From the NCBI GenBank assembly GCA_937892105.1, contig CALAUZ010000053.1, forward strand, positions 1 to 10,729: a stretch of 10,729 nucleotides of DNA. Direction: 5' to 3'. The stretch is from an uncultured Fretibacterium sp. (GTDB lineage Bacteria; Synergistota; Synergistia; Synergistales; Aminobacteriaceae). Shown here one piece after another: positions 329 through 10,729 of this stretch (position 1 is the stretch's first letter; each line of letters opens with the position of its first letter). A program made the position numbers and the translations under genes. A model generated the notes under the pieces. The model was not told where the DNA came from. It searched no databases and saw only the letters and a program-made list of their open reading frames with translations.

Positions 329-360
329 GTATAAACATAAAAATACTCTTTATTAATTCT

Positions 361-613
361 TTAGCGCAGAGATACGGTTATTCTTGCGCTAAAGAGATAT
401 AAATATAGATATTATCTATATATTTATTAGCGCAGAGTGTGCGCCAATAACTGCGCTAAAGCGCGCTAATTAGTGTTCATCGAATTGGCGCAGTTATTAG
501 CGCAGATTTTTTCTTGTGTTGCGCTAAAGAAAACCTAGTCAACAACTAATTGGAGCAGTTTATTAGCGCAGGTATCGGGGCATATGCGCTAATAAAATTT
601 TTGCTTGCGCTAA
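361..613. repeat. Array of TTAGCGCA boxes in both orientations (iteron-like)
   Basis: TTAGCGCA occurs exactly at 361, 427, 497 and 563. Its reverse complement TGCGCTAA occurs exactly at 385, 452, 520, 585 and 606. Near-copies lie at 440 (TGCGCCAA), 462 (CGCGCTAA), 485 (TTGGCGCA) and 550 (TTGGAGCA). The boxes pair into four inverted units with gaps of 14-17 bases, repeating every 66-70 bp. Flanking bases are also conserved: ATTAGCGCAG on one arm, TGCGCTAAAG on the other. One more copy sits inside the RusA-like gene at 5-12. The array lies directly beyond the replication gene's terminator and contains an AT-rich stretch. It is best read as a replication origin or as an operator array for a plasmid-encoded protein. 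The repeats are seen directly; the function is inferred. Confidence 0.8.
393..428. other. AT-rich segment with a dyad inside the box array (possible unwinding element)
   Basis: These 36 bases are almost only A and T. They contain the inverted repeat ATATAGAT-att-ATCTATAT (403-421). They lie between the first and second TTAGCGCA units, where an origin's DNA-unwinding element would be expected. The base composition and dyad are seen; unwinding is inferred. Confidence 0.4.
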
Positions 614-629
614 AGAATTTTTCAGGCAT

Positions 630-660
630 AAAAAAAGCCCAGATGTTAAACATCTGAGCT
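630..660 (-). terminator. Rho-independent terminator overlapping the end of the replication gene
   Basis: On the minus strand, AGCTCAGATG pairs with CATCTGGGCT (one G-T mismatch-type pair) around a five-base loop, followed by seven T. The stop codon TAA of the replication gene (648-646) lies in the loop, so the stem begins inside the last codons. Confidence 0.9.
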
Positions 661-2262
661 ATATTTCGCGAAAGAGTACTCGCTAAATTTTGTTGCCCCT
701 CTTTTTTGGAGTTTTCCAGTTTTGATGAACTCGGTGAGTATTCGCTTGAGTTGGTGTTCTGTTACATTACCGTCAATTTCGGAGATGATGATTTGAGAGC
801 GTGAAAACCATTCACCTGGAGCAAAATTTTGTCGCAGGTAATTCCACACAGCAATCTTTGAGTTGTTCACTGACGCTGGGGCTAGGTCAGTTTGCACGAC
901 TGTCCCGCCGTAGAAGCCTTCCTTCAGAGTGTATGTGAAGGGCATGAAAGAACTGAACCATGACTTGAGAGGTCTTACAAGCAGGAGCTTCTCATCTTCT
1001 TTCATAGGCTCAATGCCAACAATAAGACCGACTAACCTGTTCATGATACTGGAGCCAATGACATCATCTTGATTGAGAGATAAGGAGCGTTCTTTAGCGA
1101 GCCTCTTTCGTGAATGATGTACAGGAACGATGGCGATATTTTTGTCCCTTGCAAGTGTTGCCAGCTTCTTGATGATAGGCTTCATTTCGGTGGCTTTATT
1201 CTCGTCCCTCTCATGGAAAGAAGAGAAAGTGTCAATGAACAGTATATCGGGGTTGCACATGTCAACAGCGCGGAGAATATTCTGCCATCCTTCAGAATCA
1301 TCGAGCATGACGGGAATATTTTTAGTTTCCGCTTCGTATTGGTCAAGAACTTTAACATTCTCAGGATTAATAGGCCACTTCATAGACGCGCCTCTTCTTG
1401 TGAGAAGTTCATAACCAGCTTCGCCCGCAAGAATAAGGCAAGTTCTCTGGGGTTCATCTTCAGCGAAGCCGTCAAAGACAGAGCCGCCAATGCTAAGGTC
1501 AGACACGAACTTCTGCATGAATATAGTTTTGCCCGTACCAGGAGGAGCTATGAGCATACTGACGAACTTACGAGGGAACAAACCGCCGATGAACTCTTGA
1601 GGGGGGAGCTGTAAATTTGGGTCAAGATTATGTATGACGTAAGACAGCGATTTACGGGTATTATATTCGCGTTTTTCTGGTTCAGTCATACAGCCCCATC
1701 TGATTTTATCTTTCAGTAAATCGGATGTGTAGTCATCGCCGTGAAGTAGAGCAAAATCGTCCCAATCCGAGCCGTCTTCATCGTTTTTGAAAGATGGAGC
1801 GATGACATCGACAGCCAGTCCCATCTTGACGAGTTCTTGAGCGTGTGAAATACCTGGATTGAAGCCGCGTTTAGCTTCAGTAGCCCAATCATTGTCAGCC
1901 ATGACGATAATTTTGCACTTGAAGTATTTGCTCTTTATGGCTTGTGCAATAGCTTTTAGGGAGTAGCAAGATAGTCCTGCGACACAGGGTTTGCCTGTGA
2001 GTTCGTAAAGTTTAGCCATAGTAGCAAAGCCTTCGCCGAGCAAAATAACGCCCTCAAAATCGCTTGTATTAAGAGTATCGAGACCAATGCTCCAAAAGAG
2101 GCCATCAAGAGAGGTATCTTGCTGAAAGCGTTTAGAGCCGTCAGGGTTAATCCACTGTATAGATTTGACGATGCCGTTGATGTTTCGCAGTGGAACAGCG
2201 AGTTTGTTCTCGGAATTAATACGAATGCCGTAAGGGAAGACCTGCTTATTCTTGAGATACAA
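646..2262 (-). CDS. Toprim primase-like / RepA-like AAA helicase replication protein, N-terminus apparently missing
   Basis: This is a plasmid or phage replication protein joining a Toprim domain to a RepA/DnaB-like ATPase. Counting from the TTG at 2262 (538 aa), Toprim covers about 60-165, with GEGFAT (E77) and MADNDW (D123, D125) as metal ligands. The AAA_25-type ATPase covers about 220-420: Walker A APPGTGKT (239-246), Walker B PDILFIDTF (338-346) and VHHSRK (381-386). A winged-helix-like tail follows 470. The frame is open to 2418. Residues encoded there (lysine/glutamate-rich, then ILWETLKEAPEDHLYLKNKQV) look like the linker that precedes Toprim in plasmid primases. No ATG/GTG or ribosome site is found, and a TAA closes the frame at 2421-2419. 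The start is therefore uncertain. The usual N-terminal primase or zinc-binding part is absent and no other frame upstream supplies it, so the gene may be truncated. Confidence 0.85.
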   Translation of the reverse strand: MYLKNKQVFPYGIRINSENKLAVPLRNINGIVKSIQWINPDGSKRFQQDTSLDGLFWSIGLDTLNTSDFEGVILLGEGFATMAKLYELTGKPCVAGLSCYSLKAIAQAIKSKYFKCKIIVMADNDWATEAKRGFNPGISHAQELVKMGLAVDVIAPSFKNDEDGSDWDDFALLHGDDYTSDLLKDKIRWGCMTEPEKREYNTRKSLSYVIHNLDPNLQLPPQEFIGGLFPRKFVSMLIAPPGTGKTIFMQKFVSDLSIGGSVFDGFAEDEPQRTCLILAGEAGYELLTRRGASMKWPINPENVKVLDQYEAETKNIPVMLDDSEGWQNILRAVDMCNPDILFIDTFSSFHERDENKATEMKPIIKKLATLARDKNIAIVPVHHSRKRLAKERSLSLNQDDVIGSSIMNRLVGLIVGIEPMKEDEKLLLVRPLKSWFSSFMPFTYTLKEGFYGGTVVQTDLAPASVNNSKIAVWNYLRQNFAPGEWFSRSQIIISEIDGNVTEHQLKRILTEFIKTGKLQKRGATKFSEYSFAKYSSDV

Positions 2263-2559: not shown

Positions 2560-2832
2560 TTATAGAGTAGTTTCCTTCATCTGGAGGTATGCGTGAATAA
2601 TTTTCTGGTATTGCTCATTGTCCATAGCTTCCCTGATGAGAGCAAGAAACATAGAATTGTGATTAAGGTCTTTGACCTTAGCGAGAATTTTGACATTCTC
2701 CAGTTCGTCCTTGTTAGGGTAGATAGTAACCTGCTGTCTTTCCTTCGATGGCATTGACTCGGTGGGCTTCTGCTTTCGAGAGATGAAACGGGAGACATCA
2801 GAATCGGACGCAAAATCTCTTTTCTTAGCCAT
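2560..2832 (-). CDS. Small basic protein after ParA, probable centromere-binding partner (ParB-like role)
   Basis: This 90-residue protein starts at an ATG with AGGAGG eight bases upstream. The start overlaps the last eight bases of parA, so the two are translationally coupled, which is the usual layout of a partition cassette. The N-terminal third is basic and polar (KKRDFASDSDVSRFISRKQ). The C-terminal part (about 34-90) has a short strand-like VTIYPN followed by helices, compatible with a ribbon-helix-helix fold, though I recognise no exact family. The gene itself is intact. The insertion in parA separates it from the natural parA promoter and places at least one terminator-like hairpin between them. 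It is now probably translated, if at all, from transcripts that start in the insert. The function rests on position more than on motif. Confidence 0.7.
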   Translation of the reverse strand: MAKKRDFASDSDVSRFISRKQKPTESMPSKERQQVTIYPNKDELENVKILAKVKDLNHNSMFLALIREAMDNEQYQKIIHAYLQMKETTL

Positions 2833-3293
2833 GAAGATGACCTCCTAAAAATTCGTCAATGAAATGGCCGTAATCAAGAGCGGCATTTGTAGTAGGGTAG
2901 TCGAAGATACACTTTCGGTCAGACTGGCATACGCTGATAGTATTGCACCTGCGAATAACAGTATTGTAGACCTTAGTGTTCATGACGAGAGCGATTTTTG
3001 AGAGCTGTTCCTTCAAGTGTTGTCCGATGATAGTTCTGGGATTGAAGATGGTGATGAGAATGCCGTCAACAATGAGAGCCGGATTCATGAACTGGAGAAC
3101 ATCATCGAGAGTAGCGGAAAGATCCATGAGGCCATCGAGAGCGAAAGTCTCAGCAGAAGAACAGAAGATGATTTTGTTGCTAGCGATGAGAGAATTAGCA
3201 ACGGCAAGGTTGAGAGCGGGAGGATTATCAATGATGCAGAAGTCATAAGCCGAGTGAAGTTGAGCGAGAGCCTTTTTGAGCAGAAACTCACGT
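2825..3293 (-). pseudogene. parA: parA, C-terminal part (residues 100-255), separated from its N-terminus by the insert
   Basis: ParA partition ATPases move plasmid copies apart. This fragment supplies the second half: the switch II region DFCIIDNPPALNLA, then helices and strands up to the stop at 2825. It lacks the Walker A loop, which is encoded about 5.1 kb away at 8450-8748. Joining base 3293 to base 8450 gives one uninterrupted frame of 768 bases, or 255 aa, the usual ParA length, reading NKREFAGREFLLKKALAQ across the join. In the present sequence the frame is instead continuous with a serine-recombinase fragment (3298-3400), so a chimera of about 190 aa starting near TTG 3400 is possible. 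Without the P-loop it cannot be a working ParA ATPase. The stop overlaps the next gene's start. Confidence 0.9.
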
Positions 3294-3297
3294 CCCG

Positions 3298-3400
3298 AAA
3301 TGCTCCTGCTTTCTTCCTGTGCGATGCTGGACATCACGATCAATAGAAACTCACCTTTGGAGTCCAGTGTCCAGATGTTCTCTTTTTCAAATACCTCCAA
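3298..3400 (-). pseudogene. Serine recombinase catalytic-domain fragment fused to ParA
   Basis: The frame encodes FEKENIWTLDSKGEFLL followed by MSSIAQEESRSIS. This is the highly conserved stretch about 90-130 residues into large serine recombinases of clostridial elements, part of the resolvase domain. Only about 34 residues remain. The catalytic serine and all upstream sequence are missing, as is the large DNA-binding C-terminal part. Homology stops exactly at the insert edge, where the reading passes in frame into ParA residue 100. Upstream, an in-frame TAA (3412-3410) bounds it, so any translation would start at TTG 3400 or inside. The segment cannot encode a recombinase. Confidence 0.85.
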
Positions 3401-3567
3401 ACGTCCCGGTTACAACCTCGATGTTTTTCGTCGTAGGATCATAGAGAGAGCAGTTCACGCCAGATGGCTTCGATCTCATCCGGTAATAGAAGCTGCTCCT
3501 GTTACAGGTTTCTGAAAATCCATTTTGCAAGCCGGTATTCGACTTCCTTATGTGCGTTTTTGAGCAT
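3387..3567 (-). pseudogene. Broken SHOCT-like small ORF of the recombinase-linked type
   Basis: A perfect ribosome site (AAAAGGAGGT, 3585-3576) stands eight bases before ATG 3567. Translation begins MLKNAHKEVEYRLAKWIF but meets TAA at 3504-3502. Reading on in the same frame gives LLLPDEIEAIWRELLSL, the helix pair seen in short SHOCT-domain proteins that often sit just upstream of serine recombinases. A shift near 3440 is then needed to read YDPTTKNIEVVTGTF, ending at 3387. One nonsense change and one frameshift therefore make it non-functional. It directly adjoins the recombinase fragment, with the recombinase 5' end deleted between them. The SHOCT assignment is from memory of family sequence and is moderately sure. 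Confidence 0.6.
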
Positions 3568-3664
3568 ACGCACCTACCTCCTTTTCCATTTGGTAGGTCT
3601 AAGAATCGCTCTAAACTCCACACACAGCAAGCAAGTTTTGAACCCTTATCGTTGAATTGTAAGA

Positions 3665-3680
3665 CCACACAAAAGTGTGG
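3665..3680. repeat. Short perfect hairpin CCACAC-AAAA-GTGTGG
   Basis: Six-base arms surround a four-base loop. No T-tract follows on either strand, so it is a weak terminator candidate for the transporter operon. It lies between the broken membrane-protein remnant and the SHOCT-like remnant, where no coding sequence could be supported (about 3568-3751). Confidence 0.4.
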
Positions 3681-3751
3681 CAGTATGTCGGAAAAATGGC
3701 GTAAATACTGGCAAATGAAAGCTGGAATAACTCTTGTTATAACATTTGCCA

Positions 3752-3888
3752 CTATTTTCGGTGCATATTATCATACGATATCGGAACATAAAAAGTCGTG
3801 GCTGGATTCATTCCAAACAGAATGCCCCAATCTGAGTCGTGATGTAGAGAAGTGCGGAAAAGATTCCTGTCGTAACAAGATACTTCAC
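3752..3888 (-). pseudogene. Frameshifted membrane-protein remnant, possibly an MptD-like ECF transporter S component
   Basis: Two bases after the stop of the second ABC gene, a GTG opens a frame VKYLVTTGIFSALLYITTQIGAF that looks like the first membrane segment of an integral membrane protein. It stops at TGA 3810-3808. Continuity resumes in another frame with FGMNPATTFYVPI before a stop at 3752. The combination resembles the N-terminus of MptD-family putative ECF S components, which I recall being found next to ABC pairs of this type. Only about 40 of an expected 180-200 residues are visible. The shift is clear; the family name is tentative. Confidence 0.45.
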
Positions 3889-3890
3889 AG

Positions 3891-5627
3891 TTATCTTCTG
3901 ATCGACCAATCCTGTCCTTCGCTTTGAACCTTAACCATCCGTGCAAACAAGCCGTTAAGCTCCATAAGTTCGGAAGGCTTGCCACTCTTTTGAACTTTGC
4001 CGTCAGCAAGAACCACAATCTTGTCTGCACCGGAGACCGTCCGCATTCTGTGTGCAATGACAATCACCGTCTTGTTTTTTATCAGTCGTGACAGGGCGGT
4101 TTGGATCGCCGTCTCATTTTCGACATCAAGACTGGCGGAGGCCTCATCCAGCAAAATAATAGGGGAATCTTTTAGAAAAGCCCTTGCGATGGATATACGC
4201 TGACGCTCCCCTCCAGAAAGTTCGCTGCCATTCTCTCCGATTACTGTATCATAGCCTTTCGGAAGCCTCTGCACAAAATCGTCGCAGTTAGCGAGCTTCG
4301 CCGTAGCTAGAATTTCTTCATCTGTCGCATCTTTTTTTCCTATTCGTATGTTTTCCTTAATTGTGTTGTTAAACAATGTTACATCCTGAAACACAATAGA
4401 GTACACAGAAAGGAGAGTTTCGGGATCGATCTCAGATATATCAATGCCCCCAACTGTGATCTTACCTTTGTCAACATCCCAAAACCTCGCTACCAATCTT
4501 GAAATAGTAGTTTTTCCTACGCCGGATGTTCCAACAAGAGCTGTGACCTCTCCCTGATTTGCTGAAAAAGAAACATCCGAAAGCACTTTTTTCCCATCTT
4601 CATAGGAGAAAGCGACATTGTGGAACGCAATATCGTAACCATCGGGCGTGAAATCGCTTTTCCCTGTTTGTTCCGGATAATCAGTTATCTTATTCATACG
4701 ATCAACGTTTACCTGCAAGGCGTTCAACGCCCCAAGATTTATAAGCGTACCTGACATCGGTTCATAAAGTCTTGAAACAACAAGAAGGAATGAGAAGAAT
4801 TCCATCAGACCTATTTCCCCGCTTTTCAACAGGAAGCTTCCGCAAAGTGCCACTGTACCAATGCCAAGCTTCAGGACAAGCTGTGCAGAAACAACGAACA
4901 GTGCCACCCCAAGTTCTGCCCCGATTGCACGTTTCTCCACAATATCTATCTTTTGATCCAACTCATGCAGATAATCAGTCTCAAAGTTATAACTTTTCAA
5001 ATCACGGTTCGTCTCAATAAATTCCTGTACGCTTTCATACAAAGAAACCTTTGCTAAAGATTGATTCCTTGCAAAGATATGCTGAACTTTTTTTGATATC
5101 AGCACTATAGTAAGGGCAACCGGTATTACCCATACAGCAGCCAGTGCCATTTTCCATTGAAAGAAAAACAAGCCAACACAAATGACTATAGTAGAGATCA
5201 TGGCACCGTAGTATTGTGGTATTTGATGTGATCCTGCGTGTTCGAGCATCTCACTGTCCGACATAATGGTCATTGTCAAATCTGCAAGATCTCTTTTCCC
5301 AAAAAAGGAAAGCGGAAGTTTTCGTAGCTTTTCTGCAAGGGACACTCTGCGTTTTCCTGATTCAATATATGTAGAAAAATAAGAAGAATTATACTTCCTA
5401 AAGTTAGTAACATATATGAGTACCAGGCATATCACGACACCAATAATGTAGAAAACAATCCTGCAGGATGATATATTTTTATCAAGATAGTCGCTGGTAA
5501 AAAAGTAAAGCAGGCTTACAGGAAACATTAAGGACAAATTCGAACAGGCTGCAGCGATTATCGCCTTTTTCATATCTCTTGCACCCTGCTCTGAAAGAGA
5601 GAATTTTTTCATAATAGTGCTTTTCAT
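3891..5627 (-). CDS. ABC transporter subunit 2, fused membrane and ATPase domains
   Basis: This is a half-transporter of the type IV exporter fold and the likely partner of the gene just upstream. Starting at ATG 5627 it has 578 residues. The membrane domain (about 20-310) has several hydrophobic segments. The ATPase has Walker A GTSGVGKTT (366-374), Q-loop VFQDVTLFNN, signature LSGGERQR (470-477), Walker B IILLDE (490-495), D-loop SASLD and H-loop IAHRM, all canonical. The frame is open to a TTG at 5648. ATG 5627 is preferred because it follows the upstream stop by five bases and has GGAAGGTAGG upstream. Coupled translation with the upstream gene and the similar size point to a heterodimer. 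The substrate is unknown: drug export or siderophore/peptide transport are the main options. Confidence 0.9.
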   Translation of the reverse strand: MKSTIMKKFSLSEQGARDMKKAIIAAACSNLSLMFPVSLLYFFTSDYLDKNISSCRIVFYIIGVVICLVLIYVTNFRKYNSSYFSTYIESGKRRVSLAEKLRKLPLSFFGKRDLADLTMTIMSDSEMLEHAGSHQIPQYYGAMISTIVICVGLFFFQWKMALAAVWVIPVALTIVLISKKVQHIFARNQSLAKVSLYESVQEFIETNRDLKSYNFETDYLHELDQKIDIVEKRAIGAELGVALFVVSAQLVLKLGIGTVALCGSFLLKSGEIGLMEFFSFLLVVSRLYEPMSGTLINLGALNALQVNVDRMNKITDYPEQTGKSDFTPDGYDIAFHNVAFSYEDGKKVLSDVSFSANQGEVTALVGTSGVGKTTISRLVARFWDVDKGKITVGGIDISEIDPETLLSVYSIVFQDVTLFNNTIKENIRIGKKDATDEEILATAKLANCDDFVQRLPKGYDTVIGENGSELSGGERQRISIARAFLKDSPIILLDEASASLDVENETAIQTALSRLIKNKTVIVIAHRMRTVSGADKIVVLADGKVQKSGKPSELMELNGLFARMVKVQSEGQDWSIRR

Positions 5628-5632
5628 ACCGC

Positions 5633-7408
5633 TTAACCTACCTTCCAATTAATAGAGCTTTGATACTCCATCCACATCTTGTGGTATAACCCATTGCTTT
5701 GTATAAGCTCGTCATGTTTTCCACATTCTTCAACCTGCCCGTTATTCAGGACGTAAATCATATCGGCATATCTTACGGTAAACAGTCGGTGAGCGATCAT
5801 TATGACAGTCTTATCTTTTGCCAATTCCATAAATGCCTTCTGTATTTGGTTCTCACACTCCGGATCAGCAAATGCGCTTGCTTCATCCAAAATAACTATC
5901 CTGGCGTTTTTTAAGAAAGCTCTCACAATTGCAATCCTCTGTTGTTCTCCTCCAGAAAGATACGTTCCTTCACTGCCAAGCACTGTCGCTATGCCATCAG
6001 GGAAGCGTTCTATAATATCCATACACTGAGCCCTTTTTAATGCGTCCATCATCTCAGCTTCTGTTGCATCAGGTTTTGCTATACGGAGATTGTCAGCAAT
6101 CGATCGCTTTAATAATTTACTGTCTTGGAATACATAAGAAATATAATCCATCAGACGCTCTTTCGGTATACCACGCACATCAGAATGCCCTATTTTTACA
6201 CTGCCCTCCTGCGGATCAAAAAAGCGTGAAATGAGGCCCGCAACAGTCGTTTTTCCGCTTCCTGACGGTCCGACAAGAGCTACAATTTGATTGCTCTGAA
6301 CAGACAATGACAGCCCATTAACAGCAGCTGGAGCATTTTCTTCATAGCGATAGGAGACATTCTCTAAAATCACTGAACCATCTGACAACTCGTTACAAGT
6401 ATCTGTCTGCTCAAAAGGGGTAAGATTCATGATGCTGTCAATGCGCTCCATTGCATCATTGATTTTCATAGTATTCTCTGAAATAAACATCACTCTGTCC
6501 ATCGCCGTGACAATCACAGGAGTGAAAATGACATAAAACAAAAAATTCAGAAGTATATCCTGCCTGTATCCACTATGATGCATCAGTAAGATTGCAAGCA
6601 GCAATATAAATGCAAACGCAGAATTTATCATAACGGTATACATCAGCATCAGCTGGCGGCATCTAACAGTATAGCGAATACAAAAATCGCTATATTCATC
6701 AATAGATTTTTTGAACCTCTTAAATGAGAAAACCGTTTGTCCGAAGGTTTTTACAATCGGAATGCCTCTAATATATTCCACAGCCTCATTAGACATATCG
6801 CTTAAAGCATTCTGGTAGTTTTTCATATCCTCCTGCATCCCGGGCCCCGCCATTTTCATCATAGCTCCAAACCCCAGGGCGACAGGTATAAGGCATACTA
6901 TTCCAAATCTCCAATCATACAGAAACAAAAGAACGACCATTCCAATTGGTGTCACTACTGCCGTTGCCATATCCGGGAGATTATGGGCAAGAAGCGTTTC
7001 CGCGGCTCCTGCCGTTTCCGTAACAATTCTGCGTACCTTGCCGGAACCCATTTCGTCCGCAAACCCTATAGGAAGCCTTGCAATATGGGACAGTAAATCT
7101 CTCTTTATGTTGCTGGCCACTCGAAAGGCGGACATATGGGAATACATCAAGGCACTTATGTAAATCAACCACGATATAACCGCAAAGAAAACAGCCATCC
7201 AGCCATTATGGATAATGCTTGTCGCATTCTCAAATTCAGGATAGACATCAATAATCTCCTTGAAAATCCTCCATAAATACACAAATGGAAGAAGCCCTAA
7301 GCATGCACTAACAGCCGATAACACCAAGGACAGGTATGTAAGTCCCGCCCTTCCGCCCGCATATGTCATCAAACGTGGAAATGCGGAGGTTTTGCTTTTA
7401 TTTTTCAT
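5633..7408 (-). CDS. ABC transporter subunit 1, IrtA/B- or YbtP/Q-like half-transporter
   Basis: This 591-residue half-transporter has a membrane domain (about 20-315) followed by an ATPase. Motifs: Walker A GPSGSGKTT (380-388), Q-loop VFQDSKLL, signature LSGGEQQR (484-491), Walker B RIVILDE and H-loop IAHRL. After Walker B it reads DEASAFADPE, replacing the usual SALD D-loop. I know this AFADPE form from the IrtAB and YbtPQ siderophore-importing members of the exporter fold. ATG 7408 is chosen over ATG 7417 because AAGGA lies eight bases before it, while the earlier ATG abuts the purine tract. The gene follows the TetR gene by 57 bases, in one operon. The heterodimer with the next gene is inferred from order, spacing and size. 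The substrate is not shown by the sequence. Confidence 0.9.
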   Translation of the reverse strand: MKNKSKTSAFPRLMTYAGGRAGLTYLSLVLSAVSACLGLLPFVYLWRIFKEIIDVYPEFENATSIIHNGWMAVFFAVISWLIYISALMYSHMSAFRVASNIKRDLLSHIARLPIGFADEMGSGKVRRIVTETAGAAETLLAHNLPDMATAVVTPIGMVVLLFLYDWRFGIVCLIPVALGFGAMMKMAGPGMQEDMKNYQNALSDMSNEAVEYIRGIPIVKTFGQTVFSFKRFKKSIDEYSDFCIRYTVRCRQLMLMYTVMINSAFAFILLLAILLMHHSGYRQDILLNFLFYVIFTPVIVTAMDRVMFISENTMKINDAMERIDSIMNLTPFEQTDTCNELSDGSVILENVSYRYEENAPAAVNGLSLSVQSNQIVALVGPSGSGKTTVAGLISRFFDPQEGSVKIGHSDVRGIPKERLMDYISYVFQDSKLLKRSIADNLRIAKPDATEAEMMDALKRAQCMDIIERFPDGIATVLGSEGTYLSGGEQQRIAIVRAFLKNARIVILDEASAFADPECENQIQKAFMELAKDKTVIMIAHRLFTVRYADMIYVLNNGQVEECGKHDELIQSNGLYHKMWMEYQSSINWKVG

Positions 7409-7465
7409 ATGACACATCCTTTCCGGTCAGAATATCCCGACCGCAATATTTCACAAGCTAAAATA

Positions 7466-8116
7466 TCAAATTCCTTTCATTGACATAGAATCAGGTAACC
7501 GAATTCCCATTGTATATACAAAGCCAGCAGTGTAAAAATCATATAACTGTATTACATACTTGCGGGCACTCTCGATAGGAATATCGTGAATGATCAGTTC
7601 AAATAACCCCGCAAATCTGCCGCTTATAATGATATGCAATAGTTTCACTGGGATTTTTTCATATTGCTTTTCTTCGGTTTGAATGCTGTTCATGAATTTT
7701 TCAGTAGAAGCAATCTCCCTTTCTGTCAGTTCATGGAGCATATTCTCGTATTTTGTTCCTGCACTGCCGTTTATCAGAATGAGAAAAACTCGCTTATGTT
7801 CATACATATATTCCAGCATTTCAGCAAAGCATTTTCTCCCACCCTCATCCATATGTAGCATCTGTTCAGAAGGATTTAGTTTTGCAAAGTCACTTGCAAC
7901 GGCATCATGCATAGAGAGTAAATGCAAATAATGTTCGCCAACTATCGAATCGAACAGATCTTCTTTATTTTTATAATGCCAGTAAAATGATCCTGTGGTC
8001 ACACCTGCCAATTTAGCAATATTTCTAAGCGAGGCATTTTGAAAGCCTTTCTCCAAAAATTCTTCCTCAGCTGCTTTGTGTATCCGATCTTTTGTCACTT
8101 GATCGTCCGTATTCAT
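7466..8116 (-). CDS. TetR/AcrR-family transcriptional regulator
   Basis: This 216-residue regulator has a typical N-terminal helix-turn-helix at about 9-55 (AAEEEFLEKGFQNASLRNIAKLAGVTTGSFYWHYKNKEDLF), broken here only by my reading of its helices: AAEEEFLEKG, NASLRNIAKLAG, TTGSFYWHYK. The helical C-terminal part, about 60-216, is the variable ligand-binding and dimer domain. ATG 8116 has AGGAGG eight bases upstream. The gene leads an operon with the two ABC genes, and two copies of ATAACnnnGTTAT lie in its promoter. It most likely represses its own operon until a transporter substrate binds. The family call is secure from the motif; the ligand is unknown. Confidence 0.92.
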   Translation of the reverse strand: MNTDDQVTKDRIHKAAEEEFLEKGFQNASLRNIAKLAGVTTGSFYWHYKNKEDLFDSIVGEHYLHLLSMHDAVASDFAKLNPSEQMLHMDEGGRKCFAEMLEYMYEHKRVFLILINGSAGTKYENMLHELTEREIASTEKFMNSIQTEEKQYEKIPVKLLHIIISGRFAGLFELIIHDIPIESARKYVIQLYDFYTAGFVYTMGIRLPDSMSMKGI

Positions 8117-8132
8117 TAATAGCGCCTCCTCT

Positions 8133-8179
8133 ATAACGCTGTTATGGTATAATCTATAACTGTGTTATGGAAAAGTCAA
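8133..8179 (-). promoter_or_regulatory. TetR operon promoter with two operators
   Basis: On the minus strand, TTGACT (8179-8174) is followed by 17 bases and TAGATT (8156-8151). Two perfect palindromes with five-base arms, ATAACnnnGTTAT, sit at 8156-8168, inside the spacer, and at 8133-8145, near the transcript start. Their centres are 23 bases apart. A dimeric TetR-type repressor on either would block RNA polymerase. The palindromes are seen; which protein binds is inferred. Confidence 0.75.
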
Positions 8180-8314
8180 TACACCTATCAAAAAAATCAG
8201 CATTCTGCACAGCCCGCCCTCGTTTACCGATTTGATTTTGTGCGTTATAACCTTTTTATTTTGACTGCGAAGCGGGTTCAAACGCTTCTTGCATCCGCTC
8301 CGCCATATCTTGGC

Positions 8315-8368
8315 AAAAAAAGTAAGGCTTTCGGCAGACCGTCCAAATCCGCTGAAAGCCTTTACTTT
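8315..8368 (-). terminator. Terminator-like inverted repeat inside the insert's right end
   Basis: Arms AAAGTAAGGCTTTC (8319-8332) and GAAAGCCTTTACTTT (8354-8368) pair along about 14 bases with one bulged T, around a 21-base loop. On the minus strand the stem is followed directly by seven T (8321-8315). It would stop transcripts coming from the truncated parA, insulating the TetR operon and cutting the ParB-like gene off from its native promoter. Confidence 0.6.
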
Positions 8369-8386
8369 AGGCACTTTTCTACACTT

Positions 8387-8410
8387 CCGTGTGCAGGACC
8401 GTGTGCAGGA
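8387..8410. repeat. Two tandem copies of CCGTGTGCAGGA
   Basis: Two exact, adjacent 12-bp copies (8387-8398 and 8399-8410) lie about 40 bases inside the insert's right boundary. They might be recombinase or accessory-protein sites at the element end. No matching copy is seen at the left end. Confidence 0.7.
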
Positions 8411-8449
8411 CATTGTATCAATCTTTGGTTATACATATTGGCGTAGATG

Positions 8450-8748
8450 CCCGCGAACTCCCGCTTATTGAGAGCGACATCAAGAGAGCTGAGACGTTTG
8501 TCTGCGCCGATGAGGTGATATAAAGGAAGTTCCTGAATGGTCTCATTGATGTTCTCTTTGCCAGTGAGGATGTCGAAAGAGCCAACAACGTTGTCCTCGC
8601 CACCACTAGCTTTAGAGAAGTTAGCCTGAGCATCGCAGTCAATAGCGAGGACATGAAAATTACGTTTTGACAGGTCGCTGGCGAGAGCGAGAGCAGTAGT
8701 AGTTTTAGCGACCCCGCCCTTCTTATTGACGATACTAATGATTTGCAT
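8450..8748 (-). pseudogene. parA: parA, N-terminal part (residues 1-100), cut by the insert
   Basis: ATG 8748 has AAAGGAGA seven bases upstream. The product begins MQIISIVNKKGGVAKTTTAL, with the ParA-type deviant Walker A loop at 9-17 (an A where most have G before KTT). Walker A' AIDCDAQAN follows at about 35-43. Sequence characteristic of the family continues to NKREFAG (94-100), where the insert begins. After the junction the frame reads about 29 foreign residues (IYANMYNQRLIQ...) to a stop at 8362. The fragment keeps the nucleotide-binding loop but lacks switch II and the dimer and DNA-binding surfaces, so partition activity must be lost unless a second copy exists elsewhere. It fits in frame with 2825-3293. 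Confidence 0.9.
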
Positions 8749-8763
8749 GAAGCAGTCTCCTTT

Positions 8764-8906
8764 CATGTGATAACTTAATACGTTATAACATTTTCATAAG
8801 ATTTAATGTTAAAAGTTAAAATGTTAATAATAACGATAGAGATATAGATGAAGGAATGACGGTAGTATGTGTGAAGACTAATATTGAGCGAGCCTGTTGC
8901 AGTAAT
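8764..8906. repeat. AT-rich region upstream of parA with AATGTTA repeats, candidate parS
   Basis: AATGTTAA occurs at 8805-8812 and again at 8820-8827, 15 bases apart. The inverted form TAACATTTT occurs at 8786-8794, matching AAAATGTTA at 8818-8826. Centromere sites of small plasmids often lie just upstream of parA as short AT-rich repeats bound by the partner protein, which would also regulate the operon. A parA promoter should also lie here, but I cannot fix it. A TTAACA with a TATAAC 19 bases on is the best weak candidate. No gene is seen. Confidence 0.45.
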
Positions 8907-9013: not shown

Positions 9014-9991
9014 TTATAAAGAGCTTATTTCGTCGAAGGATAAGTTAGTGAAGGTATGAATGTCATTATCGCTCATGCCCGCATGGCGTAAGCGTCTGGC
9101 GGTTTCAAAGTTAGCTTCACGCCTGCCGCGTTCAATTCCGCGTTCTTCCCCAATAGTGATTCCTTCATTAAGTCCTTCGCTATGCCCTTTGTCGTGGAAG
9201 TATTTTTCGACAAAAGTTAATTGAGCCATAGTATCATCTCCTTGAAAATCATGAATGTCATGAATGAATTTTTGCTGTAGAGCTTGGTCTTTTAGGTTGA
9301 CAGCGCGGACGATGAAATTGAAGATGTCTTTGCGTTCTTCCTTGCCCCAACCTTTAGAAGCGAGTAGGCGAGTGAGTTTCAACAAGTAAGAGAATTTCTT
9401 TTCTTCCTTGCTTTTTCCGCTGAGGCCGATAGTCTTTTTAGTGGCGTAGAAAATGAGGTCGAAGGGATTATCGGAGTTAAGGAGATTATCATCATCGAGA
9501 GCGTAGACCTCGAAGCAGTTATACTTGTAAGAAATACTAGAACCATAATGCTCAAGGTGATAAGCCCCAATGATTTCATCTTTAGGACGGCGTTTAGTGA
9601 GAATAGCGAGCCCAACGGGCATTTTTCTGTGATGAGCGAAGATGAGACAGCAGTAGAGCATCATGCGGAAGGAAATATCCTCGCCGCCGCTGCCTTGAAC
9701 CTCAATATGTAGCAAAATCCATTCAGATCTGCCGTCTTTGAGGAAAATTTTAATGAGTTCATCAACAAAGAGAGGAGAATTATGCTCACCAGCAACAGGA
9801 CGTTGAATAGAATCGCGAAGTTCTTTAGAGAGGAACTCCGGCTCCCGAGAAAAATCCACGTCCTGATAAAGAGCGGGTAAAGTGCGTTGAATGAGCTGAG
9901 GAAGGAAACGTTTAATAGCGTCCTTCCATAAGCCGTCGAAATCAGCGCGCTCAGAAGCAGTAGAAATGTTGTCAGAAAAATTGTTATCCAT
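9014..9991 (-). CDS. Rpn-family PD-(D/E)XK nuclease / putative transposase
   Basis: Rpn proteins are DNA endonucleases linked to RecA-independent recombination and are widespread on mobile DNA. From ATG 9991 (GAGGA seven bases upstream) the protein has 325 residues. An earlier in-frame start (10081) lacks this support and would overlap the gene upstream. The nuclease core shows D77 in PLFVDELIKIF and the E97-x-Q99 of LLHIEVQG, fitting the D...ExK/Q active site of this branch. Around residues 270-300 glycine recurs every fourth position (GHSEGLNEGITIGEERG). The tail ARRLRHAGMSDNDIHTFTNLS is the small helical end often seen in this family. It follows the Xre gene by 65 bases and is probably co-transcribed. 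Role inferred from family. Confidence 0.88.
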   Translation of the reverse strand: MDNNFSDNISTASERADFDGLWKDAIKRFLPQLIQRTLPALYQDVDFSREPEFLSKELRDSIQRPVAGEHNSPLFVDELIKIFLKDGRSEWILLHIEVQGSGGEDISFRMMLYCCLIFAHHRKMPVGLAILTKRRPKDEIIGAYHLEHYGSSISYKYNCFEVYALDDDNLLNSDNPFDLIFYATKKTIGLSGKSKEEKKFSYLLKLTRLLASKGWGKEERKDIFNFIVRAVNLKDQALQQKFIHDIHDFQGDDTMAQLTFVEKYFHDKGHSEGLNEGITIGEERGIERGRREANFETARRLRHAGMSDNDIHTFTNLSFDEISSL

Positions 9992-10056
9992 GTAAGAATC
10001 CTCGACAAAAAATAATGATGTAATTATACATGTAGATGTGTCGGAGACAGAGAAAA

Positions 10057-10332
10057 TTAAGGGAGAGAATTTTGGTCGCAAAAAGAGTTAATGAAATAAG
10101 CGAGGCGATAAGAAAAATCCTTTTGAGAAATGTTGAGAGCTTTGCAAATATGTTTAATGGTATGAAATTGAGGCCATTGATTGCCGTTTTCAATGCTGAT
10201 CCATTTTTTGAGGGACAAGCCAGAGAGTTGAGCAGCTTGTAGTTGAGATAAGCCCTTCTCTAAGCGAAACTGTAAAATGACGTTAGCGAACATGTTTTTA
10301 ACGTTGTTACTGGAGTCATCATAGTTGTACAT
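10057..10332 (-). CDS. Small Xre-family helix-turn-helix regulator
   Basis: This 91-residue protein has AGGAGG seven bases before ATG 10332. Residues about 20-72 form a Cro/CI-type helix-turn-helix: FRLEKGLSQLQAAQLSG, then LKKWISIENGNQWPQFHTI, then KHICKALNIS. The rest is a short tail. The gene lies upstream of the Rpn-family gene and behind a promoter overlapped by the dyad ATCTAC-n5-GTAGAT, so it is likely an autorepressor also controlling the nuclease. It could instead be the antitoxin-like half of a pair with the nuclease, but that is only a guess from position. Confidence 0.85.
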   Translation of the reverse strand: MYNYDDSSNNVKNMFANVILQFRLEKGLSQLQAAQLSGLSLKKWISIENGNQWPQFHTIKHICKALNISQKDFSYRLAYFINSFCDQNSLP

Positions 10333-10412: not shown

Positions 10413-10729
10413 TTAGGTATAGAGAGGGTCATGCCAGTTAGGAGAGTAAATAGTGGCAGGTCTAGCCCAAGAGCGTTGAAATCTGCGCCAATCGCGAGAG
10501 GTATAGTCTTTGAAATCCCTGTAGAGCATGGCCATAGGACAGAAACCGAGAGCCTTGACGGTCTCCAGTCGTTTAGTGGCGAAGTCGAAGGAATCGCCGG
10601 GATAACCGATGAGGACGTAACAGCGTAAAAGATTTCTGTTGCCGTACCCCGCATCCCTGAATAGCATTGCGGCATGTTCGAGAGGTGGCAGGTCATCAGG
10701 AGTGTCGTAAGCGAAGAAAATCTGCTTAG
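10413..10729 (-). CDS. Radical SAM protein, C-terminal end only, cut by the right window edge
   Basis: About 104 residues are visible, read in frame from the edge to the stop at 10413. They begin KQIFFAYDTPDD and include LLRCYVLIGYPGDSF, GFCPMAMLYRD and WRRFQRSWARPATIY. This set is characteristic of the C-terminal half of a radical SAM protein found on phages and plasmids of Firmicutes. The CxxxCxxC cluster motif would lie upstream, outside the window, so the enzyme class is recognised from the downstream barrel and tail. Its substrate is unknown. The gene is followed after 80 bases by the Xre gene, in the same direction. Confidence 0.75.
   Translation of the reverse strand, partial: KQIFFAYDTPDDLPPLEHAAMLFRDAGYGNRNLLRCYVLIGYPGDSFDFATKRLETVKALGFCPMAMLYRDFKDYTSRDWRRFQRSWARPATIYSPNWHDPLYT

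What the first reader, a model, noticed from the sequence alone, without database searches (positions are those of the whole stretch)
3290..8455. A 5156-bp cargo element splits parA with base-exact restoration of the frame
Minus-strand flanks TTCGCGGG and GGGACGTGAG rejoin to give a 768-base, 255-aa ParA with no extra or lost codon and no target duplication. This is the signature of conservative site-specific recombination or clean microhomology joining, not of a DDE transposase. It disables the plasmid's own partition gene, so the carrier either has another stabilising system or is a losing variant.
Basis: partly seen in the sequence, partly recalled or inferred. Interest (0 to 1): 0.75.

Follow-up and report, generated by a model that had tools for sequence, protein, structure and literature searches.

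The report
Transporter cargo splits plasmid partition gene
A Synergistaceae-type plasmid contig has its partition gene parA interrupted by a 5.2-kb segment that carries a regulator and a transporter pair like those of Clostridia, and both ends of that segment are scraps of serine-recombinase genes, so it looks like the decayed remains of a known kind of mobile element.

Summary
The interruption is real. ParA-derived sequence stops at 8463 (minus strand) and resumes at 3297-3295. Uninterrupted relatives span the site (52 compared), and both halves are closest to the same two. Nothing is lost or duplicated to within about 2 bases.

The insert (about 8462-3298, 5165 bp) is a TetR regulator plus two ABC half-transporters, an arrangement found in Clostridia. 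Both ends are scraps of large serine recombinase (LSR) genes: 23 bases of a W-E-F-A-G-I-Y-A motif on the left, about 95 bases of FEKENI...QEESRSIS on the right. I found no intact recombinase or transposase in the insert and no inverted repeats joining its ends. Best reading: a passenger operon from a Clostridial LSR-type element, stranded in parA after recombinase loss. Illegitimate joining is favoured; LSR strand exchange with a GG core is not excluded. Substrate unknown. The left junction was found in no other protein searched.

The parts
8464..8766 (-). N-terminal half of parA (residues 1-95 of the 252-aa family, Walker A KGGVAKT); the ORF 8362-8766 runs on into foreign codons
   Evidence: Pfam AAA_31; 97% identical over 95 aa to P0002
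8463..8463 (-). last ParA-matching base at the left junction (first base of the codon that is Pro in most relatives)
   Evidence: BLAST to L001 ends at 8463
8440..8462 (-). left LSR scrap, 23 bases: last two bases of a Trp codon then E-F-A-G-I-Y-A
8117..8439 (-). non-coding leader of the cargo: two tandem copies of a 12-base unit at 8388-8411, a hairpin followed by T-rich sequence (read by eye), promoter-like site at 8179-8151
   Evidence: sequence; promoter scan finds no more sites than shuffles would (17 against 12.5, sd 3.5) and the terminator scan did not report the hairpin
7466..8116 (-). TetR-family regulator, 216 aa
   Evidence: Pfam TetR_N E 1.8e-15; a relative beside the ABC pair in 5 of 9 loci opened
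5633..7417 (-). ABC half-transporter 1, 594 aa, membrane + ATPase domains
3891..5648 (-). ABC half-transporter 2, 585 aa, membrane + ATPase domains; overlaps ABC1 by 16 bases
3439..3567 (-). remnant of a small ORF (MLKNAHKEVEYRLAKWIFRNL*..., stop inside) resembling ORFs just upstream of LSR genes
   Evidence: weak tblastn to L167 (E 0.085) and L214 (E 0.20), where the similar ORF precedes an LSR reading frame
3297..3391 (-). right LSR scrap, about 95 bases (FEKENIWTLDSKGEF...AQEESRSIS); N-terminal catalytic part absent, cut off at the ParA junction
   Evidence: 18 of 19 DNA matches, in 16 of 17 matching genomes (291 searched), fall in this stretch; tblastn E <= 6.1e-10 in 18 loci; PHROG 95 integrase E 7.6e-7 on the fused ORF; an Enterococcus lactis plasmid match annotated 'recombinase family protein' over 3297-3393
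2825..3295 (-). C-terminal half of parA (residues 97-252), in frame with the LSR scrap in the ORF 2825-3400
   Evidence: 91% identical to P0001
2560..2832 (-). small protein after parA (90 aa), conserved in L001 and L002, putative partner of ParA
   Evidence: no Pfam match
646..2262 (-). replication-type protein, Toprim + AAA_25, with repeats containing GCGCTAAAGA at 378-616 nearby

Best explanation
A segment of about 5165 bp from a Clostridial mobile element of the large-serine-recombinase kind lies inside the parA gene of a Synergistaceae-type plasmid. Shown: parA is interrupted cleanly; the cargo is a TetR + ABC + ABC set of a type found in Clostridia; both ends match LSR gene sequence, and I found no working recombinase in the insert. 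Inferred: the set travelled as accessory cargo of an LSR element, the LSR genes were truncated, and the piece became joined to parA by illegitimate or short-homology end joining rather than by its own recombinase; it is now immobile. It disables ParA (Walker A separated from the remaining domain). The kept trait is probably export, or siderophore-type traffic, of an unknown substrate under TetR control.
For: Uninterrupted relatives and one shared lineage for both halves. Left end matches LSR motif DNA, 22 of 23 bases at best. Right end matches LSR codons up to the junction. An LSR-upstream-type ORF remnant next to the right scrap, with the LSR N-terminus missing (weak similarity). ABC1-ABC2 side by side in 9 of 9 loci opened (9 of the 13 genomes that matched, of 391 searched in the class of G004, the genome of Lachnoclostridium locus L004) and TetR in 5 of 9. 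Of the 120 ABC1 relatives listed, the 6 that show an organism name are Clostridia or Oscillospiraceae MAGs. LSR transposons of Clostridioides difficile with ABC-transporter accessory genes are described in PMC3158075 (passages read).
Against: The 5-mer CGGGA shared at both junctions is somewhat unlikely by chance (1.5%), and a GG core would also fit if the target codon had been Arg, as in P0208; both would favour a recombinase-made join. The left scrap is only 23 bases; its best match, L226, sits in a frame cut short (101 aa) and is one of the 3 of 120 without the upstream pattern, though it has the FEKENI-like segment at the expected spacing. The donor element was not found intact: no near match of the window in the plasmid collection, only ABC or recombinase pieces at distant settings, and the left end matched genomes of that class over about 30 bases at most. 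Whether the operon is commoner outside that class was not searched in genomes.
Confidence: 0.62

Rival explanations
1. Site-specific insertion by a large serine recombinase supplied in trans, with a GG (or CGGGA) crossover core; the ends are the element's true ends.
For: Both junctions share CGGGA; if the target codon was CGG (an Arg is found at this site in P0208) the two junctions share exactly GG at the same parA position. LSR elements are reported with 2-bp direct repeats (Tn6104; GG for Tn6115, where the recombinase is predicted) and perfect 5-bp repeats (Tn6103) (PMC3158075, passages).
Against: 50 of 52 relatives have Pro here, which breaks the GG register by one base. Both ends lie inside LSR coding sequence, unusual for LSR element ends (recalled). 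No other protein searched carries the left junction.
Confidence: 0.2
2. Ordinary DDE transposition with a 5-bp duplication CGGGA.
For: CGGGA occurs at both junctions.
Against: The left GGGAG is part of the LSR Trp-Glu codons, and the model needs a target one base shorter than the family, i.e. a frameshifted parA. No listed inverted repeat joins the ends (25 of 35 pairs shown, minimum 16 bases; the nearest, 3627-3645 with 8274-8292 at 79%, lies 170-330 bases inside), and no transposase is in the insert.
Confidence: 0.05
3. Assembly chimera between a Synergistaceae plasmid and a Clostridia contig.
For: The left junction is seen only in the window's own protein; cargo and backbone have their relatives in different phyla; no reads available.
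Against: Two independent false joins would have to meet at the same parA position within about 2 bases; the bases shared at the joins (5) are far below usual assembly k-mers (recalled). A 97% relative of ABC1 exists on another contig (P0088), but its surroundings could not be read.
Confidence: 0.08
4. Two-step version of the best explanation, overlapping with it: the operon was inserted inside one LSR gene, and an LSR-gene piece (codons about 64-165) carrying it later ended up in parA.
For: The scraps are in the same orientation and in N-to-C order, and both junctions are in frame with ParA.
Against: An ORF that in two loci precedes an LSR lies between cargo and right scrap, and most LSRs with WEFAGIYA have a different FEKEN segment, pointing to two LSR genes.
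Confidence: 0.15

Closest known systems
LSR transposons of Clostridia (Tn4451/TnpX, Tn6104, Tn6115, Tn6103 kind)
   Same: serine-recombinase module, ABC-transporter accessory genes in several, short direct repeats of 2 or 5 bp (passages of PMC3158075)
   Different: here the recombinase is only scraps, no mobilisation or excision gene was recognised, ends lie inside LSR codons
TetR + two ABC half-transporter operon of Clostridia
   Same: gene order; 52-56% (ABC1) and 60-61% (ABC2) identity in 9 loci, TetR in 5
   Different: here on a Synergistaceae-type plasmid; the 97% relative of ABC1 is known only as a protein
YbtPQ / IrtA exporter-fold importers and TM_0288, MsbA transporters
   Same: half-transporter architecture by sequence; 6p6i (YbtPQ; the YbtP name is recalled, YbtQ is in the listing) and IrtA score above MsbA and TM_0288 for ABC1, 6p6i also tops the single half-transporters for ABC2
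   Different: two-domain eukaryotic ABCB proteins score higher overall; no substrate evidence; the 25 best NCBIfam hits shown for each subunit are all below curated cut-offs
Deletion-broken parA in L002 (goat reticulum Synergistaceae)
   Same: same neighbourhood with parA broken
   Different: broken by an internal 332-bp deletion (my count) at a GCTC repeat, no insert

Membership tests
Large-serine-recombinase mobile element | intact LSR gene with catalytic N-terminal domain | tested here: not met
   only 23-base and about 95-base LSR scraps; no recombinase ORF of 60 aa or more in the insert other than the fused scrap
Large-serine-recombinase mobile element | shared core dinucleotide at both ends matching the empty site | tested here: inconclusive
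   GG shared in register only if the target codon was Arg; 50 of 52 relatives have Pro
Large-serine-recombinase mobile element | excision / circular form | not testable with these tools
   no reads or cells
DDE transposon | terminal inverted repeats and transposase | tested here: not met
   no listed inverted repeat joins the insert ends (25 of 35 pairs shown, repeats under 16 bases not searched) and no transposase in the insert; the Rpn-like ORF 9014-10081 lies outside it and is also in L001 and L002
ParA partition ATPase (interrupted gene) | AAA_31/ParA domain, both halves of one gene | tested here: met
TetR-regulated heterodimeric ABC transporter | TetR beside two complete membrane + ATPase half-transporters | tested here: met
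   that TetR regulates the pair and that the two subunits pair up is not tested
Known drug-efflux ABC pair (Tet(46)) | score above curated cut-off | tested here: not met
   tet_ABC_46 subunits at most 199 bits against a cut-off of 1250

The most novel reading that the evidence does not exclude
A recombinase-less cassette whose ends are LSR codon motifs: LSR genes themselves could serve as crossover points, so that a foreign LSR acting in trans moves passenger operons flanked by LSR scraps into sites with a short matching core, such as the K-P-G-R-E-F codons of parA, and could later free them exactly.
Probability: 0.1. Interest if true: 0.55.

Novelty: new member of a known kind. Interest (0 to 1): 0.3.

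Why it matters
It points to transfer of a Clostridial transporter operon into a Synergistaceae-type plasmid and shows how a decayed serine-recombinase element can strand cargo in a plasmid maintenance gene. Together with the deletion-broken parA in L002 it suggests that this plasmid family may tolerate loss of ParA, which can be tested. It is of modest, not general, interest.

Tried and rejected
DDE transposition with CGGGA as duplication: disfavoured (needs a frameshifted target; GGGAG is LSR). tRNA- or RNA-family-guided insertion: no tRNA and no Rfam match in the window. Window as a closed circle: not supported, the radical-SAM-like gene is cut at base 10729 and its N-terminal part was not found elsewhere in the window.

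Searches that led nowhere: plasmid collection near; distant, only ABC pieces in 7 records at 68-76%; left end in plasmids; exact left-end patterns in viral contigs; TetR in viral contigs; left end in 21 and 391 genomes, matches of 27-33 bases only; parA region in 81 genomes of the family of G001, 2 matches, both already known; ParA in viral contigs, 70 loci at 25-38%; in genome contigs 38 loci, only L001 and L002 above 34%; ABC1 in plasmids, at least 5000 records, all below 60%; replication protein in plasmids, all below 60%, with the ten listed at 21-32%. PADLOC: only weak HTH-type hits and one weak mad8 hit among five proteins.

Limits of counts: the 52 leave out proteins without a GRE motif or with less than 60 aa before it, and come from P0001-P0055 only; identities there are ungapped, so P0008 scores falsely low. 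Searches scored only the 2-3 best candidates per genome. Of 13 matching genomes only 9 were opened. In one search candidates were limited to about 74-234 aa and clustered at 90%; besides the window's own protein (96% covered) the highest coverages were P0220 (84%, at 35% identity) and P0210 (76%).

Papers: PMC3158075 passages only; the others as search listings with abstract starts only. The LSR motif WEFAGIYAD, the 'SHOCT-like' label in my notes and the first comparison with TnpX began as recall; the motif was then tested. My notebook gives TetR as 5-6 of 9; the count is 5.

The rival probabilities add to more than 1 because the two-step version overlaps with the best explanation.
Full report
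Observation. The window encodes on its minus strand a radical-SAM-like gene fragment (so named from recall; conserved in L001 and L002), an HTH protein, an Rpn-like protein, the first half of ParA, a TetR regulator, two ABC half-transporters, the second half of ParA, a small conserved protein and a Toprim/AAA_25 replication-type protein. The ParA halves lie 5.2 kb apart. The quoted flanks are present.

Empty relatives. L001, a Fretibacterium MAG contig, has the same gene order around an uninterrupted 252-aa ParA; DNA identity is 89.8% beyond the 8463 side and 86.3% beyond the 3295 side, and the aligned parts stop at 8463 and 3295. The protein search found 86 relatives of the C-half. In an alignment of 22 of them, 21 have Pro at the site. 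Of 52 that span the site and could be compared, 50 have Pro, 16 are exactly 252 aa long and none is 255; against P0001 and P0002 the N-half is 96-97% and the C-half 90-91% identical, so the halves are one gene. One more relative, P0208, has Arg at the site.

Where the junctions really are. ParA sequence ends at 8463 and resumes between 3297 and 3295. Within about 2 bases nothing is lost or duplicated. Both junctions carry the 5-mer CGGGA, one base out of register relative to ParA; a simple simulation puts such sharing at 1.5%.

What the ends are. The first 23 bases of the insert match the DNA of a conserved LSR motif (last two bases of Trp, then E-F-A-G-I-Y-A): of 120 viral-contig matches to the degenerate motif, 117 lie in frames with a recombinase-like pattern upstream and 82 have a FEKENI-like segment 68 codons on; the best DNA match is 22 of 23, in L226, whose frame is cut short and is one of the 3 without the upstream pattern; the next best are 21 of 23. 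The last 95 or so bases match LSR codons FEKENIWTLDSKGEF...AQEESRSIS: in 16 of 17 matching genomes, of 291 searched, the match falls in this stretch; 18 loci match as protein; PHROG 95 integrase matches the fused ORF; and one plasmid match there is annotated as a recombinase family protein. Beside it lies a remnant of a small ORF that in L167 and L214 sits before an LSR; this similarity is weak (E 0.085 and 0.20). The LSR start and catalytic part between that ORF and the right scrap are missing. So the insert carries LSR debris on both sides, and I found no working recombinase in it.

What the cargo is. ABC1 and ABC2 lie side by side in all 9 loci opened (9 of 13 matching genomes of 391 in the class of G004, the genome of Lachnoclostridium locus L004), with TetR in 5 of 9. 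The nearest protein to ABC1 is 97% identical on another contig (P0088), the next 74%. Among single half-transporters of known structure the best are YbtPQ (both subunits) and, for ABC1, IrtA; two-domain ABCB proteins score higher. Tet(46) models score far below cut-off. The substrate is unknown.

Mechanism. The picture is of an accessory operon of a Clostridial LSR element, a kind known to carry ABC transporters and to be flanked by 2-bp or 5-bp repeats (passages of PMC3158075), reduced to a recombinase-less fragment and joined into parA. Because the ends lie within LSR codons, I favour illegitimate or short-homology joining. A GG-core LSR reaction remains possible if the target codon was Arg. 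A chimera is unlikely because two false joins would have to meet at one site within 2 bases, but no reads were available to test it.

Consequence. ParA is split between its Walker A half and its remaining domain, so it is very probably inactive (inference). A sister locus, L002, has parA broken by a 332-bp deletion at a GCTC repeat, so loss of parA may be tolerated in this family. I recognised no second stabilising system in this window, but did not search for one specifically, and the window is not a closed circle.

Verdict. Real insertion, partly mis-described; a new, decayed member of a known kind, its left junction seen only in this window among the proteins searched.

Noticed in passing
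L002 2827-2860: parA of a goat-reticulum Synergistaceae contig is broken by a 332-bp internal deletion at a 4-base GCTC repeat, relative to L001.
   Followed up: partly
window 331-616: Repeats containing GCGCTAAAGA or TTAGCGCAGAG near the replication gene look like an iteron origin.
   Followed up: no
window 9014-10081: Rpn-like recombination-promoting nuclease ORF conserved in L001 and L002 beside parA.
   Followed up: no
L001 8957-9532: A small serine-recombinase-like ORF follows the parA/small-gene pair in L001 (and, split, in L002), whereas the window diverges below about 2391 and has a replication gene instead.
   Followed up: no
window 8388-8411: Exact tandem 12-base repeat GTCCTGCACACG (minus strand) between the left LSR scrap and the TetR gene; no exact match of the stretch in viral contigs.
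   Followed up: partly
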